The notes under the pieces are model-generated. The model was not told where the DNA came from, made no database searches, and worked only from the letters and a program-made list of their open reading frames with translations. Below are positions 9,336-22,484 of a stretch of DNA of 32,246 nucleotides, piece by piece. Made by a program: the position numbers and the translations under genes. Each line of letters starts with the position of its first letter. The stretch's first letter is position 1. Source of the stretch: Nostoc sp. TH1S01 (GTDB lineage: Bacteria > Cyanobacteriota > Cyanobacteriia > Cyanobacteriales > Nostocaceae); NCBI GenBank assembly GCA_018993265.1, contig JAGKSW010000075.1, positions 1 through 32,246 on the forward strand, given 5' to 3'.

Positions 9336-9503
9336 TTTTTACTCAGCAACGCTAGTCCGCTCAAGTCGAGCCAGCGCGTTGCGGTGAAGCACTTGCGGTG
9401 GACGGGTTTCCCGGCATAAGCAAAGTGGTTCACCCGAAGGGAGGTTCCCTCCATTGTAGCGACTGGGGTGGGAAACCCGCCCATGCGGCTGGCTCCTCAG
9501 CAC
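9336..9503. repeat. Composite palindromic repeat, long copy
   Basis: Its ends (TTTTTACTCAGCAACGC at 9336-9352 and CTGGCTCCTCAGCAC at 9489-9503) match the ends of the shorter repeat at 15375-15440 in reverse orientation. The interior is longer and holds further palindromic pieces (GTTTCCC near 9404, GGGAAAC near 9470), as if another element had inserted in the centre. It fills the middle of the 324-bp gap between the sigma factor gene and the convergent hypothetical gene. No coding capacity. Confidence 0.6.
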
Positions 9504-15159: not shown

Positions 15160-15342
15160 ATGCAGACAGTACACAAGATTTACTGCCCAAATTGTGGTAG
15201 TAATGCAGAGCGTTATTATATTTTGGACAGCGAATTAACACGTACCCAATGCTCAAGTTGTGATTACTTGATGATTAGTTGCACGCGTACTGGCAAAGTG
15301 GTTGAAGCTTACGCCCCTGGAATTCAACTAAGTAAAAGATAA
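15160..15342 (+). CDS. Small zinc-ribbon protein (60 aa)
   Basis: A 60-residue protein with two CxxC knuckles, 'YCPNCGS' (Cys9/Cys12) and 'QCSSCDY' (about Cys31/Cys34), spaced to hold one zinc ion. Small proteins of this form occur across cyanobacteria and are sometimes mislabelled as 'PriA' because of the shared zinc ribbon; there is no helicase part here. The role is unknown; nucleic-acid or protein binding is a reasonable guess. A 'CAGGGGTTTTAAAATG' leader gives a weak Shine-Dalgarno. A heptamer array begins five bases after its stop. Confidence 0.8.
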   Translation: MQTVHKIYCPNCGSNAERYYILDSELTRTQCSSCDYLMISCTRTGKVVEAYAPGIQLSKR

Positions 15343-15346
15343 AAAA

Positions 15347-15381
15347 GTGCTGAGTGCTGAGTGCTGAGTGCTGAGTGCTGA
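15347..15381. repeat. Heptanucleotide tandem repeat GTGCTGA, five perfect copies
   Basis: Five perfect GTGCTGA units (15347-15381) directly follow the zinc-ribbon gene and run into the palindromic repeat at 15375-15440, whose own end is GTGCTGAGGAGCC. The array may therefore have grown from the end of that element. Confidence 0.85.
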
Positions 15382-15440
15382 GGAGCCAGTGCGTTGGGCG
15401 GCTTTGCCAACTTGAAGCAACTGGCGTTGCTGAGTAAAAA
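15375..15440. repeat. Palindromic repeat, short copy, with 39-bp hairpin core
   Basis: The core at 15386-15424 (CCAGTGCGTTG ... TTGAAGCAACTGG) is homologous, base for base in length, to the 39-bp palindrome inside tnpB at 17771-17809. The flanks GTGCTGAGGAG and CGTTGCTGAGTAAAAA match the reversed ends of the longer copy at 9336-9503. Confidence 0.7.
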
Positions 15441-15565
15441 TTCATTTCAGGGAGTCGTGAGTGGGGAGTAGGGAGTACGAATATTATTTATGAGCGCAAC
15501 TTAAGATCAGTTTCTCCTAAAATGAATTAATTTCAGAATTCAGAATTCAGACTTCACACTTCAAT

Positions 15566-16633
15566 TTACTTTTTATTCATTCTCAATTGTCCACAAGCAG
15601 CATCAGCTTCTAAACCGCGAGAATAACGCACGCTAACAGCGATTTTTTGTTGTTGGAGAATGTTGACAAAAGCTTGAATGCGATCGCGGCTAGGGCGTTG
15701 ATAATCAACTTCTTGAATTGGGTTATAAGGAATCAAATTAACATGACTTTGAAACCCGCGCAGACGTTGTGCTAGTTCTAAGGCGTGTTCTGGCAAATCG
15801 TTCACACCAGCCAGCAAGATATATTCAAAAGTTACACGGCGGCCTGTCATCGCTACGTATTCTCGACATTCAGCCAGTAAATCTTCTAAAGGATAGGGGC
15901 GGGCGCTGGGGATAAGTTGTTCTCGCAGTGCTTGGTTGGGTGCGTGGAGACTCACCGCCAGAGTAACTTGCAAATGGTGTTGGGCGAATTGACGAATGCG
16001 ATCGCGGATTCCGACTGTAGAAACAGTTAGCATTCGCTGTCCAATACCCACATCTTGATTTAAGGATGTGAGTGCAGCTAAGACATTATCTGTATTTAGC
16101 AACGGTTCACCCATACCCATGAACACCACATTGCTGACTCGTTCTTGAAAATCTTCTTGTACAGTTAAAACCTGATCGACAATTTCGTGAAGGGCGAGGT
16201 TGCGTTTATAGCCATCTTTCCCTGTGGCGCAGAAATCGCAAGCCATCGGACAACCCACCTGGGTAGAAACACAGACAGTTAATCGCTTATCGGCGGGAAT
16301 ACCCACAGTTTCAATAATCTGCCCATCAGCTAGTTGCAGCAGATATTTGACTGTACCATCCGATGCAACTTTGCGATAGTGGATGGTAGAACGACCAATG
16401 GGGATATCTGCGATTTCTGCACGCCATTGTTTAGGAAAAACGGAAATATCAGCAAGCGATCGCACTTGCTTATGATAAATCCAATCATGTAACTGTTTAC
16501 CTCGATAAGCTGGCTGTCCCTGCTGCTGTACCCAAGCAGTTAACTCGCTAACCGAAGCACCGAGTAAGGGAGGAATTGCTAATTTTTTAGTGGCGGGTGA
16601 GTCAACTGGAGAAATTGATGGCGTAGCAGACAT
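15566..16633 (-). CDS. rlmN: Dual-specificity RNA methyltransferase RlmN
   Basis: 355 residues, the normal length for RlmN, a radical-SAM enzyme that methylates C2 of A2503 in 23S rRNA (and A37 of some tRNAs). The Fe4S4 cluster motif CxxxCxxC is at Cys128, Cys132 and Cys135 ('[14 protein letters not shown]'). SAM-binding 'MGMGEPLLN' follows, then 'TVSTVGI' and 'AVSLHAPN', and the catalytic C-terminal cysteine Cys347 lies in 'EADAACGQL'. An N-terminal RNA-binding helical domain ('[13 protein letters not shown]') is present. It is a stand-alone gene on the minus strand; nothing suggests co-transcription with the transposon gene 66 bp upstream. The identification is secure. Confidence 0.97.
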
Positions 16634-16699
16634 AGGGAGAGACTTACGAGTTGAGACTTGGATCTCTATCCTAAGCTTTTACGCTAGGAAATTGCATAT

Positions 16700-17083
16700 C
16701 TAATTAGAGTATCCACTGACATACTTAATTACTGGGTCTGTTTGGATCACCCGATTATTTTTGATAATATCTAGACTCGCACCATTCACAACATATTCGT
16801 AGTTTTGATTCTTAACAACATACCCTGTGCCTTCTTCTGTGTAAGCACGTAGAGAACGAACACCTTTACCGTTCAATTTAGAGATACCTGTATAAAACAG
16901 CTTCCCACTTTTGTTACAAATATGAATATAAAAATTGGTAGTTTCAATATAAGCTTCTAACTGTCCCCCTCCTGCATAGCGAGGGCAAGTATAGGCATTT
17001 GCAATTATTTGATTACTTACTGTTTGTGCAGCACTCGCAGATGAAGAAGTTCCGACAATTCCTGTTAATAGTAAACTACCTAC
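16700..17083 (-). pseudogene. 3' part of an interrupted secreted-protein gene
   Basis: From about 17083 down to the stop at 16700 the minus strand encodes the rest of a signal peptide (hydrophobic 'GSLLLTGIVG', then 'SSSASAA' before Gln, a standard signal-peptidase site) and a mature domain of about 108 residues with two cysteines, 'YTCPRYAGG' and 'IHICNKSG', likely a disulphide. It is now in frame with tnpB. Joined to the 5' piece at 18540-18592 it would restore a protein of about 145 residues. I do not recognise the mature domain; it looks like a small periplasmic or extracellular cyanobacterial protein. Confidence 0.7.
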
Positions 17084-18322
17084 ACCGACCTGAGTACAGG
17101 TGCGGTGTAGGCTTTTTAGTAGCCCTGAACTATCCACGCTGAGTTCACAGCATAAACAGTTCGAGCCTCTGGGCGAGTTTACAAAATTCACCCCAATAGC
17201 AGCAATATTTTTTGCTCCGTTTAAATCAGCATCACCACTCCAAGAACAAGCCTCATTGATGCACTTGAAACGCTTGTCAGAACGCATCCCAATATGTAGG
17301 CATTGATGACACATTTGACTTGTCCAAGCTGGAGGAACAGCAATTATTTTTACTCCAAATTGGATGGCTTTGTATTCCAAGAAAGAACGCAATTGGAAAA
17401 AAGACCAAGAGTTAGAACGCCTACGTTCTGTTTTACTTCTTGTCTTTTGATTGGTTCTTTCACGAATACCCGTTAAGTCCTCAATTGCCACGGCTGCATT
17501 ATTTTTTAATGCGTTCTGAATTATAGACTTGCTGATGTTGTGGTTTAGCCATTGCTGAAATCTTCTCTCCTTGCCCGACAACCGTTGCAAAATCTGCCTT
17601 GCCCTGCGGCGAGTAGACCTTGTGCCTTTCGTAGCCTTTTTCTGGAGAGATGCCCTCACTCTAGAAAACTTATCTCTAACATCGTTGATTTGCTTCCCAT
17701 CCCACTTATCCCCATTGCTAGTTACAGCAATGTCTCTGCGACCAAAATCAACACCAATGACATTATTGAGCCACTGCGTTGCCGGGGTTTCCCCGGTTGA
17801 AGCAAGTGGCGTAGGTTTGATTGGTTCTGGTACTTCGTCTTTAATTTGGATGTGGATGTAGTAGTTACCGTCACGATGTTTACATAACTGTGCTGATGTT
17901 GGTTTTCTACCTTTTAATTTGCCTCTTTGATAATTACCAGCATCAATTTTGATATGTTCCCTGCCATTCATTAAAGTTAAGCTAACAGTCCAGTCCTTCT
18001 CTTTAAACGAGAAGATTCTGGCATCATAATCAGCCGATGTTGGCTTAAATACTTTAACTGGCTTGTCTTTTAGTTTGGCAGTTTTGCGATTAGCCCCAAC
18101 CCTGGCACAAGCACGAACAGCTAAATTTGCGCTTAACCCAAACAAAGCACGAATCTCGTTATAAACCAGATTCTGAATAGTCATCTTGCTGGTTATCTGA
18201 GGCTTAACTTTCTGATTGGCATAGTTACACGCATCAGCAAAAGCTGTCAGCAACAATTCGATTTCTTCTGATTGTTTTTGGGAGGGGTTGAGTTTGCAAA
18301 CTAGCGTCAACACTTGTTCCAT
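16700..18322 (-). CDS. tnpB: TnpB-type RNA-guided nuclease, reading frame fused to the 3' part of the interrupted host gene
   Basis: Residues 1 to about 410 are a complete-looking TnpB of the IS891/IS1341 branch: RuvC catalytic Asp192 ('GVDFGRRD'), Glu281 ('AVAIEDLTG') and Asp366 ('DADLNGAKNI'), plus a zinc finger (Cys338, Cys341, Cys354, Cys359). There is no stop at the element's end, so translation runs into about 127 residues of unrelated sequence beginning 'VGSLLLTGIVGTSSSASAAQ', which is the second half of a signal peptide and a mature secreted protein. Residues about 170-185 ('TPLASTGETPATQW') are encoded by an inserted 39-bp palindrome. No tnpA accompanies it. TnpB proteins cut DNA with a guide RNA made from the element's right end, which helps keep the element at its site. 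Start ATG at 18322. Confidence 0.9.
   Translation of the reverse strand: MEQVLTLVCKLNPSQKQSEEIELLLTAFADACNYANQKVKPQITSKMTIQNLVYNEIRALFGLSANLAVRACARVGANRKTAKLKDKPVKVFKPTSADYDARIFSFKEKDWTVSLTLMNGREHIKIDAGNYQRGKLKGRKPTSAQLCKHRDGNYYIHIQIKDEVPEPIKPTPLASTGETPATQWLNNVIGVDFGRRDIAVTSNGDKWDGKQINDVRDKFSRVRASLQKKATKGTRSTRRRARQILQRLSGKERRFQQWLNHNISKSIIQNALKNNAAVAIEDLTGIRERTNQKTRSKTERRRSNSWSFFQLRSFLEYKAIQFGVKIIAVPPAWTSQMCHQCLHIGMRSDKRFKCINEACSWSGDADLNGAKNIAAIGVNFVNSPRGSNCLCCELSVDSSGLLKSLHRTCTQVGVGSLLLTGIVGTSSSASAAQTVSNQIIANAYTCPRYAGGGQLEAYIETTNFYIHICNKSGKLFYTGISKLNGKGVRSLRAYTEEGTGYVVKNQNYEYVVNGASLDIIKNNRVIQTDPVIKYVSGYSN
17079..17111. repeat. Right-end hairpin of the tnpB element
   Basis: CCTACACCGACCTG (17079-17092), loop AGTA, then CAGGT, a bulged G and CGGTGTAGG (to 17111): a 14-bp stem with one bulge at the tnpB 3' end. 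Subterminal hairpins of this kind mark IS200/IS605-family ends and belong to the guide-RNA scaffold in known TnpB systems. On the minus strand the sequence just past the hairpin is host DNA and would form the guide. Confidence 0.6.
17771..17809. repeat. 39-bp palindromic repeat inserted in frame within tnpB
   Basis: CCACTGCGTTGCCGGGG, TTT, then CCCCGGTTGAAGCAAGTGG. Inner stem CCGGGG (17782-17787) / CCCCGG (17791-17796); outer stem CCACT / AGTGG. Length 39 keeps the tnpB frame and adds about 13 residues just before RuvC motif I. It aligns without gaps to 15386-15424 (29 of 39 identical), and three difference pairs (positions 4/36, 12/26, 17/21) are compensatory in the stem. Confidence 0.8.
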
Positions 18323-18461
18323 GACTTCGACCTAATCACAGATGAACATAATACATCAAAATAATCGTGTTGTATCAAAGACTTATTTGGGAAACGCGAG
18401 GGCTACCCTCTCCCTAACTTCGCTTACGCTCAGTATCGGTCAAGGGATGTTTCGCATTTCC

Positions 18462-18514
18462 CCCGCAATTCCTCTCGCCGCTTCTCTTCGAGTAAGCGGG
18501 AGCCTTCTTGCGGG
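18462..18514. repeat. GC-rich nested palindrome in the tnpB left-end region
   Basis: Outer stem CCCGCAA (18462-18468) / TTGCGGG (18508-18514); inner stem CCGCTT (18478-18483) / AAGCGG (18494-18499). A second, looser pairing joins TCGCATTTCCC near 18452 with GGGAAACGCGA near 18390. This could be the folded left end of the element or a separately inserted REP-like repeat. Confidence 0.5.
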
Positions 18515-18539
18515 AATAGGTGAAGCTGCGCCACAAGCA

Positions 18540-18592
18540 CCAGCTACAATTAGCGACAATGATTTATTTTGTATTTGTTGAAAGCTGTTCAT
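18540..18592 (-). pseudogene. 5' part of the interrupted secreted-protein gene (start and first half of signal peptide)
   Basis: The ATG at 18592 opens 'MNSFQQIQNKSLSLIVAG', a typical signal-peptide start (polar N-region with a lysine, then a hydrophobic stretch). After about 18 codons the frame passes into the mobile element and ends at a TGA at 18440. The missing half of the hydrophobic core and the cleavage site are found 1.46 kb away, at 17083 and below. Confidence 0.65.
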
Positions 18593-18875
18593 AATTAGTT
18601 TTGAAGTTTAATTATTCTCAACTTCAAACTCAACTTACATTTTTTCGGAATTGGAGAAAAAAAATTTTGCGCTCTTTTTCTCTGCGACTCTGTATGACTC
18701 ACAATCGCACATTTGTAATGAAATGTATCGCTAAGTTGCCAATAACGCCAAGAAAAATTTTAACGCACTACTGGACTGACACGACTAAAATAGTGCATTA
18801 GTAAAAATGTGAAAAACATTGATTTATCTCAATTTTATCCAAAATCTATTACAACATTTTAGCTGTGTCAATCCA

Positions 18876-21620: not shown

Positions 21621-21911
21621 TTAGCGAAGCGGTAGCGACGAAGGAGCGTCGGAATCACCATTTTCTGGTCGGTCTTGCGATTCAATGTATTGTTTCAAAG
21701 TTGAAATGGTTACTCCTCCACAACTAGCAATAAAGTATGAACCATTCCAAAAAACATCTTTGGTGTAGAAACGGCTCAGATGTGTTGAAAACTCTTGCCT
21801 AAGTCTACGGGATGTTGTTGATTTAATGTTGCCTACTAGTGTGCTTAATTGCAAATCGGGGTGATATTGAAACAATAAATGTACATGGTCGCACTCACCG
21901 TTAAACTCTAC
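21621..21911 (-). pseudogene. tnpA: TnpA (Y1 transposase, IS200/IS605) C-terminal remnant
   Basis: The minus strand reads 'KLVEFNGECDHVHLLFQYHP' then 'DLQLSTLVGNIKSTTSRRLR' and 'FWNGSYFIASCGGVTISTLK'. This covers the HUH metal motif (His-Val-His) and the C-terminal part with the expected catalytic-tyrosine helix region ('LKQYIESQ'). The first about 60 residues are missing: upstream of about 21917 the frame has no TnpA similarity and meets a TGA at 21942-21944. The frame also reads past the normal end into GC-rich repeat DNA. Not functional as it stands. Confidence 0.8.
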
Positions 21912-22484
21912 AAGCTTGCACGTAAAGTTAAAGGGAGCAAATCAAGGAACAAATTCAGAAAACTTTTAGCGAAGGTTCATGAAAGAGTATCAAATTCCCG
22001 CCAAGATTTTCTGCATAAATTAAGCAGAAATCTGGTTAACGAGAGTCAAGTTATCGTTGTGGAAGACCTTAACGTCAAGGGAATGGTACGGAATCGCAAA
22101 CTATCTAAATCAATATCTGATGTTGGGTGGGGGATGTTTGTCAATTTCATTGATTACAAGTTAAAAGCCAAAGACGGTCAACTTGTAGAGATTGGTAGAT
22201 TTTTCCCTAGCTCAAAAACCTGCTCTTGTTGTGGACACATCGTTGATGAATTGCCTCTAGATATCAGAGAGTGGGATTGTCCTGCTTGTAAAAATCATCA
22301 TGATAGGGATGCGAACGCAAGTAAGAATATCAGAGTAGAAGGCATACGGATATTATCTATCGGCGGAGGGAACCCCGTCCTTGCCGAGCAGAGGCGGAGT
22401 AAGACCAATAAGCCGCAAGGTGGAAAGGCATCTGTCAGTGAAGCCGGAAGCCCACACTTACTGCGTCAGCAGAAGTTTGGGTAG
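21879..22484 (+). pseudogene. tnpB: TnpB C-terminal remnant
   Basis: From about residue 11 ('YKLARKVKGSKSRNKFRKLL') the frame is a standard TnpB: RuvC Glu in 'VIVVEDLNVKGM', 'FFPSSKTCSCCGH', zinc-finger cysteines (CSCC, CPAC) and 'HDRDANASKNI'. The N-terminal about 200 residues including RuvC motif I (the first catalytic Asp) are gone, and the first ten codons are antisense to tnpA. The last 30 residues run through the element's right end. It has no cutting activity by itself. It differs clearly in sequence from the intact TnpB at 16700-18322, so it comes from another element family. Confidence 0.85.

What the first reader, a model, noticed from the sequence alone, without database searches (positions are those of the whole stretch)
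17771..17809. 39-bp palindromic repeat inserted in frame inside tnpB, with compensatory stem changes against a second copy
Seen: 17771-17809 and 15386-15424 are both 39 bp and align without gaps at 29 of 39 positions. Three pairs of differences (4/36 G-C to C-G, 12/26 G-C to C-G, 17/21 C-G to G-C) preserve base pairing. In tnpB the copy adds about 13 residues (around TPLASTGETPATQW) just before RuvC motif I. Inference: a structured mobile palindrome, kept by its hairpin and tolerated inside proteins, comparable in idea to the palindromic elements known inside Rickettsia genes. In-frame spread in cyanobacteria would be worth describing.
Basis: partly seen in the sequence, partly recalled or inferred. 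Interest (0 to 1): 0.7.

Follow-up and report, generated by a model that had tools for sequence, protein, structure and literature searches.

The report
Mobile hairpin repeat inside bacterial proteins
A 45-letter hairpin-forming repeat that has spread through the genomes of Nostoc-type cyanobacteria sits in frame inside a tnpB gene, adding 15 amino acids that the relatives compared lack, and it does the same in other genes, including DNA-replication and repair genes.

Summary
The two 39-bp copies are the inner part of a 45-nt element (17768-17812, 15383-15427) with at least 140 covariance-model matches in this genome. On 35 distinct copies the hairpin covaries strongly (99.3% of cells paired; 7 pairs changed on both sides). 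In tnpB it adds exactly 15 residues to a linker before RuvC motif I; 27 of 27 other loci whose best alignment covers the site lack it. Single 45-bp filled/empty differences without target duplication appear in tnpB, recJ and smc. Two diverged tnpB copies sharing the insert show dN/dS 0.11. Of 116 copies examined here, 11 lie well inside long ORFs, all open; of 92 elsewhere, 12 do, 11 open. Hosts include TnpB, transposases, SMC, PriA, RecJ and TrpD. Copies are depleted from genes (11 of 104 against 67% of control positions), and openness is only borderline above what length and stop-poor frames give (P about 0.05). Small mobile hairpins in cyanobacteria, and REPs inside genes, were known. Filed as a new member of a known kind.

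The parts
17768..17812 (+). 45-nt hairpin element inside tnpB; on the coding (minus) strand it reads TPLASTGETPATQWL
   Evidence: Model R1 63.4 bits; single 45-bp gap against empty homologue L174; absent from 27 of 27 other loci whose best alignment covers the site
15383..15427 (+). second 45-nt copy, outside the listed ORFs, inserted in a GTGCTGA heptamer array
   Evidence: Model R1 71 bits; sequence and flanks; ORF list
9387..9429 (+). weak, degenerate third copy (43 nt)
   Evidence: Model R1 23.7 bits, E 0.00044, filters off
17117..18322 (-). tnpB coding part (402 aa) that carries the element; its frame runs on to 16700
   Evidence: Pfam OrfB_IS605 and Cas12f1-like_TNB; homologues
17069..18477 (.). 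extent of DNA alignable with the second tnpB copy on contig C66, i.e. the probable insertion sequence
   Evidence: Local alignment
15347..15382 (+). GTGCTGA heptamer tandem array on the left of the second copy
   Evidence: Sequence, read by eye

Best explanation
The feature is one copy of a non-autonomous, hairpin-forming mobile element of 45 nt that is spread over Nostoc-family genomes. Shown: the element folds into two helices around a fixed internal loop (GTTG on one side, TTGAA, or TTGTA in a subfamily, on the other). Its stems change by compensation while the loop stays fixed. Filled and empty sites differ by 45 bp without target duplication, and in tnpB it is 15 extra residues in a linker, predicted with low confidence (probably disordered), before RuvC motif I. 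Inferred: it is copied in trans by an enzyme that recognises the fixed loop within the folded strand (ssDNA or RNA). Most gene insertions are removed by selection or avoided. Those in linkers and surface loops survive because 45 nt is 15 whole codons and most frames of the element lack stops, so the protein gains a tolerated peptide and keeps working.
For: Covariation on 35 distinct copies picked by the inner core alone: 99.3% paired, 7 of 13 pairs changed on both sides; 0 of 500 shuffles as high for four of the five measures, 4 of 500 for the fifth; sliding the partners destroys it. The outer stem goes with the core: 71 of 75 cores have all six outer pairs, 4 have five, G-T counted as a pair (at most 51 of the 75 were fetched by core alone, the rest through model hits). 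At least 140 model matches here, a lower bound because 150 of 3315 candidates were scored. 24 of 25 genomes of family f1, own included, match in the relatives set. Single 45-bp differences: tnpB against L174, recJ against L279, smc against L256. Nesting of copies in copies, read by eye. tnpB loci without the insert 27 of 27. tnpB copies with the insert: dS 0.262, dN/dS 0.11, against 0.08-0.12 in comparisons with the empty homologues; element identical 45/45. The insert (171-185) coincides with the pLDDT<50 segment 170-184 between strands 154-163 and 188-192. Open in-ORF copies: 11 of 11 here, 11 of 12 elsewhere.
Against: No mobilising enzyme found: over 10 Y1 transposase loci the only model hit is at E 0.99. 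The target shows only a weak purine preference on the left. Movement is inferred, not observed; precise loss instead of gain is not excluded for recJ and smc. Several filled/empty comparisons gave no single 45-bp gap: split gaps for tnpB against L173, L175 and L195 (45 in all each), and complex differences for recJ against L278 and L280, smc against L254 and L259, and every trpD and priA comparison. Not all in-gene units are 45 nt: in SMC of L257 one is 43 and in L258 47, yet the frame is open, so nearby indels must compensate. The excess of open insertions is borderline, ORFs were judged stop to stop, and two pairs of the 22 open cases are not independent (C7/C66 tnpB; L319/L382 transposase). 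The model has pTM 0.55 from 18 sequences.
Confidence: 0.87

Rival explanations
1. The segment is ordinary tnpB sequence, an ancestral loop lost in other homologues.
For: Both tnpB copies of this family found in this genome carry it.
Against: 27 of 27 other loci whose best alignment covers the site lack it; the same structure has at least 140 model matches in the genome; a related TnpB in Calothrix (L318, 46% identical) carries a copy at another site and in another frame.
Confidence: 0.01
2. The element is a REP-like unit moved by a Y1 (HUH) transposase, RAYT or other, through a single-stranded DNA intermediate.
For: Hairpin, insertion without target duplication and weak target preference fit single-strand transposition; 10 Y1 transposase matches are present.
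Against: No GTAG or CGTC tag at a fixed end; no credible copy beside any of the 10 Y1 matches; by eye only about 7 pairs of copies lie within 300 bp of each other in the list of 140, unlike REP doublets.
Confidence: 0.3
3. The element spreads through an RNA intermediate, as proposed for cyanobacterial SDRs (recalled from the abstract of Elhai et al. 2008, which is not held).
For: Stem compensation with an invariant internal loop is typical of a structured RNA.
Against: No Rfam match; no reverse transcriptase was looked for; the same covariation would be expected of a folded single DNA strand.
Confidence: 0.3
4. In-gene copies are mostly carried in by GTGCTGA-type heptamer arrays rather than inserting into genes by themselves.
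For: In smc, priA, recJ, trpD and the U32 gene the copy lies inside heptamer-coded QHSALST stretches; 14 of 116 copies abut such heptamers.
Against: recJ L279 and smc L256 have the array without the element, which fits a later insertion; the TnpB and transposase copies, the GH38 copy (L090) and the PKS copy (L367) show no such array next to them in the peptides printed.
Confidence: 0.2

Closest known systems
Small dispersed repeats (SDR) of Nostoc punctiforme and relatives (Elhai et al. 2008; abstract recalled, paper not held)
   Same: Very small, mobile, hairpin with compensatory changes, embedded in heptamer arrays, nested in themselves, confined mainly to one cyanobacterial group
   Different: SDRs are described as 21-27 nt (recalled); this unit is 45 nt. 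Sequence identity with the SDR families could not be checked
Rickettsia palindromic elements (RPE)
   Same: Palindromic repeats inserted in frame in unrelated proteins
   Different: RPEs are about 150 bp (review PMC10969869, passages seen) and end in CGTC (PMC3733652, passages seen); different phylum, no CGTC end here; no RPE sequence was compared
GTAG- and CGTC-tagged REPs (PMC3733652; section 15 and passages read)
   Same: Short palindromes, some inside DNA synthesis and repair genes of several species
   Different: No terminal GTAG or CGTC tag and no neighbouring Y1 gene found here; cyanobacterial families GTAG-12, -15 and -16 are named there but their consensus letters were not in what I read
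REPINs (PMC3116915; passages seen)
   Same: Non-autonomous hairpin repeats; Nostoc punctiforme was among the genomes studied
   Different: REPINs are REP doublets linked to a RAYT; this unit is mostly single

Membership tests
SDR (Elhai 2008, abstract recalled) | Conserved hairpin supported by compensatory changes | tested here: met
SDR (Elhai 2008, abstract recalled) | Found in heptamer arrays and nested in copies of themselves | tested here: met
   nesting read by eye
SDR (Elhai 2008, abstract recalled) | Unit of 21-27 nt | tested here: not met
   109 of 116 copies are 45 nt; among 75 cores in the fetched loci of this genome none lacks the outer stem
SDR (Elhai 2008, abstract recalled) | Sequence match to a published SDR family | not testable with these tools
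   Paper PMC2527708 not held
GTAG/CGTC REP | Terminal unpaired GTAG or CGTC tag | tested here: not met
   Of 48 flank clusters the ends are GAG...CGT in 31, AAG...CGC in 6, others in 11
GTAG/CGTC REP | RAYT gene flanked by the repeat | tested here: not met
   10 Y1_Tnp loci with their fetched flanks (33150 bases in all), only hit at E 0.99
RPE-like in-frame element | In-frame insertion in conserved proteins, absent from homologues | tested here: met
   tnpB, recJ, smc
RPE-like in-frame element | Homology to a Rickettsia RPE family | not tested
   No RPE sequence was compared
MITE | Target-site duplication on insertion | tested here: not met
   Single 45-bp differences without duplication in tnpB, recJ and smc
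Known RNA family | Rfam match | tested here: not met
   No match up to E 1 over 15200-18800

The most novel reading that the evidence does not exclude
An independently evolved, protein-compatible mobile element: its 45-nt length and stop-poor frames are themselves kept by selection because copies that enter genes must be translatable, and repeated in-frame insertion is lengthening the same loops of replication and repair proteins (SMC, PriA, RecJ) across the Nostoc family.
Probability: 0.15. Interest if true: 0.78.

Novelty: new member of a known kind. Interest (0 to 1): 0.52.

Why it matters
It extends translated palindromic insertions to a very abundant cyanobacterial element with clear filled and empty sites, and gives a natural experiment on how proteins accept new peptide segments. 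Because filled and empty alleles exist in close relatives, both the mobility mechanism and the cost to the protein can be tested directly. The recurrence in replication and repair genes, reported for unrelated REPs too (PMC3733652), is an open question that this family could help settle.

Tried and rejected
Ordinary tnpB sequence: rejected, 27 of 27 other loci whose best alignment covers the site lack it. Known RNA family: no Rfam match. RAYT-linked REP: no tag and no copy beside Y1 matches. A sharp target motif: only a weak purine preference at -2 and -3 over 48 flank clusters. Selection for coding compatibility: the 82 distinct 45-mers have 4.84 of 6 frames open against 4.14 for structure-preserving random sequences, suggestive only; one sense frame is open in just 30% of them. 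Excess of open insertions: P about 0.05, ignoring non-independence. Literature: eight searches, of which I saw only the listed rows, showed no paper on in-frame insertion of this family in cyanobacteria; Elhai et al. 2008, the most relevant paper, is not held, so prior description there cannot be excluded.

Full report
OBSERVATION. Two more differing pairs (13/25 and 14/24) pair only in the tnpB copy. Comparison of the 51 copies found with the inner pattern (35 distinct 45-mers) shows that the unit is 45 nt, from GAG or AAG to CGT or CGC in most copies.

STRUCTURE. On the 35 distinct copies the two-helix structure has 99.3% of cells paired, 7 of 13 pairs with a change on both sides and a covariation score of 0.324 against 0.103 +/- 0.013 in shuffles; no shuffle of 500 reaches the observed value on four measures, 4 of 500 do on the number of further pair types; sliding the partners by one to three columns leaves a score of at most 0.106. 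The copies are related, so the shuffles are not a probability. They were chosen by their inner core only, so the outer stem is a fair test. In a wider set of 75 cores in the fetched loci of this genome, 71 have all six outer pairs and 4 have five (G-T counted); part of these loci came from model hits, so this set is less independent. GTTG and TTGAA are invariant in the alignment, but the pattern that selected the copies fixed them. No Rfam family matches 15200-18800.

COPY NUMBER AND SPREAD. The covariance model finds 140 matches at E <= 0.1 in the 7.65-Mb genome, with 150 of 3315 candidates scored, so this is a lower bound. I fetched 118 of the 140; 22 weaker ones were left out, and 116 distinct contexts remained. 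Further subfamilies share the fold with different cores, and copies are nested inside one another (by eye). Among 41 genomes, own included, 24 of 25 of the same family match and 2 of 16 others do, weakly. In a phylum sample 27 of 244 genomes match at E <= 1e-4, 20 in the same family and 7 in the same order; two of those seven have 18 and 9 matches, and only 25 candidates per genome were scored. A pattern scan of named genomes stopped at its limit with 103 stretches; the 80 listed are mostly Nostocales, with a few in Xenococcaceae, Pleurocapsales, Crocosphaera and others. On plasmids 33 of 38 records are cyanobacterial, the other five being matches of 19-21 nt.

THE tnpB COPY. The element encodes exactly 15 residues, TPLASTGETPATQWL, four residues before GVDFG (RuvC motif I, recalled). 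Homologues were searched in 41 genomes and 30 loci taken. Two are this genome's own copies with the insert. In 27 of the other 28 the best alignment covers the site and shows gaps of 14 to 16 residues there. In L201 the best alignment stops short, and a distant second one (24% identity) crosses the site with unrelated letters. DNA alignment with L174 shows one gap of 45 bp; with L173, L175 and L195 the aligner split 45 bp into two gaps. An alignment of 18 family members keeps the acidic RuvC positions and zinc-ribbon cysteines (their roles are recalled). The predicted model is confident before the insert and recovers after it, but not within it: segment 170-184 is below pLDDT 50, between strands 154-163 and 188-192 (mean pLDDT 81.3, pTM 0.55). 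The two tnpB copies sharing the insert differ at dS 0.262 and dN 0.030 (ratio 0.11); comparisons with the empty homologues, element left out, give 0.08 to 0.12. The protein thus stayed under purifying selection after the insertion, if the insert preceded the split of the copies. The element is identical between them over 45 of 45 bases while the gene is 93% identical.

OTHER GENES. After excising each of 116 copies in a script, 11 lie in a long ORF (stop to stop, at least 40 codons on each side, 150 in all); all 11 are open with the element in place. Copies in shorter or edge-near ORFs (L015, L022, L030, L048, L050, L051, L120, L126) are not in this count; L022 lies near a TnpB C-terminus. Hosts by Pfam: two further TnpBs (L022, L045), a DDE transposase (ISAs1-like by recall), PriA, SMC, RecJ, TrpD (Glycos_transf_3), a U32 peptidase, a caspase-like and a NACHT/NB-ARC protein. 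Among 92 copies from named and relative genomes, not deduplicated, 12 lie in long ORFs: 11 open and 1 broken. The broken one is in a Uma2-like gene, where by eye the copy is nested in an older copy. Hosts there include three TnpBs, three DDE transposases, NACHT, PKS, GH38, SpoIID and AIR-synthase-like proteins; in the SpoIID case the copy lies near the ORF start and may be untranslated. A Gloeocapsa plasmid PKS also carries a copy in frame. For TrpD, PriA, SMC and RecJ the insert lies in a loop that varies greatly among 25 genomes (the script found both anchors in 25, 22, 24 and 25 loci). The model finds further copies in that loop of SMC in three relatives (L257 with two, L258, L261), of RecJ in one (L280) and of PriA in one (L233). 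Two of these SMC units are 43 and 47 nt, not 45, although the frames are open. recJ and smc show single 45-bp differences against L279 and L256, which keep the heptamer array without the element; the trpD and priA comparisons, and recJ and smc against other relatives, gave no single 45-bp gap because the loops differ in length.

HOW STRONG IS THE IN-FRAME SIGNAL. Copies avoid genes: 11 of 104 copies with at least 300 bp on each side lie in a long ORF against 924 of 1385 control positions in the same loci. Given insertion, 22 of 23 are open. By orientation and phase alone about 81% would be (4.84 of 6 frames), giving P about 0.05, and two pairs of cases are not independent. Frame preservation is thus largely a mechanical result of 45 nt and few stops.

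MECHANISM. Insertion without target duplication, a hairpin with a fixed internal loop and only weak target preference suggest recognition of a folded single strand by an enzyme acting in trans (inference). Ten Y1 transposase matches exist but none has a credible copy beside it. The choice between a single-stranded DNA and an RNA intermediate is open; reverse transcriptases were not searched.

RELATION TO KNOWN WORK. Review PMC10969869 (passages seen) describes RPEs in frame in Rickettsia genes. PMC3733652 (section 15 and passages read) reports GTAG and CGTC REPs inside genes, many for DNA synthesis and repair, and names cyanobacterial REP families. PMC3116915 (passages seen) includes Nostoc punctiforme among REPIN genomes. 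PMC4390886 (passages seen) cites SDR5 inserted in HIP1. Elhai et al. 2008 is known to me only by recall of its abstract and is the closest candidate; its sequences could not be checked.

Noticed in passing
window 16700-18600: The tnpB frame has no stop within the insertion sequence and runs into what looks like the 3' part of a signal-peptide gene whose 5' part lies near 18590: the insertion sequence seems to have split that gene and fused with it.
   Followed up: partly
window 21621-22484: A Y1 (IS200-like) transposase fragment on the minus strand overlaps the start of a TnpB fragment on the plus strand, probably a remnant of an IS200/IS605-type element.
   Followed up: partly
L138, L053, L137, L149: Elements nested inside other elements after the same CGCGTTGGG stretch of the host copy.
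   Followed up: partly
L125, L126 and contigs C70, C75, C102, C117 of G000: Six stretches share one element and its right flank in a transposase gene; the element is in frame in the two (L125, L126) where the left side could be read, so an insertion sequence appears to have multiplied with the element on board.
   Followed up: partly
G000, 33 matches to the TnpB TNB domain: Four of 33 TnpB-domain matches (some are fragments) belong to genes with an element in frame, which looks more than their small share of the genome would give; no formal test was run, and dispensability of tnpB may explain it.
   Followed up: partly
L227-L301 (PriA, SMC, RecJ) and L202-L226 (TrpD): GTGCTGA-type heptamer arrays are themselves translated as QHSALST repeats in variable loops of core proteins.
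   Followed up: no
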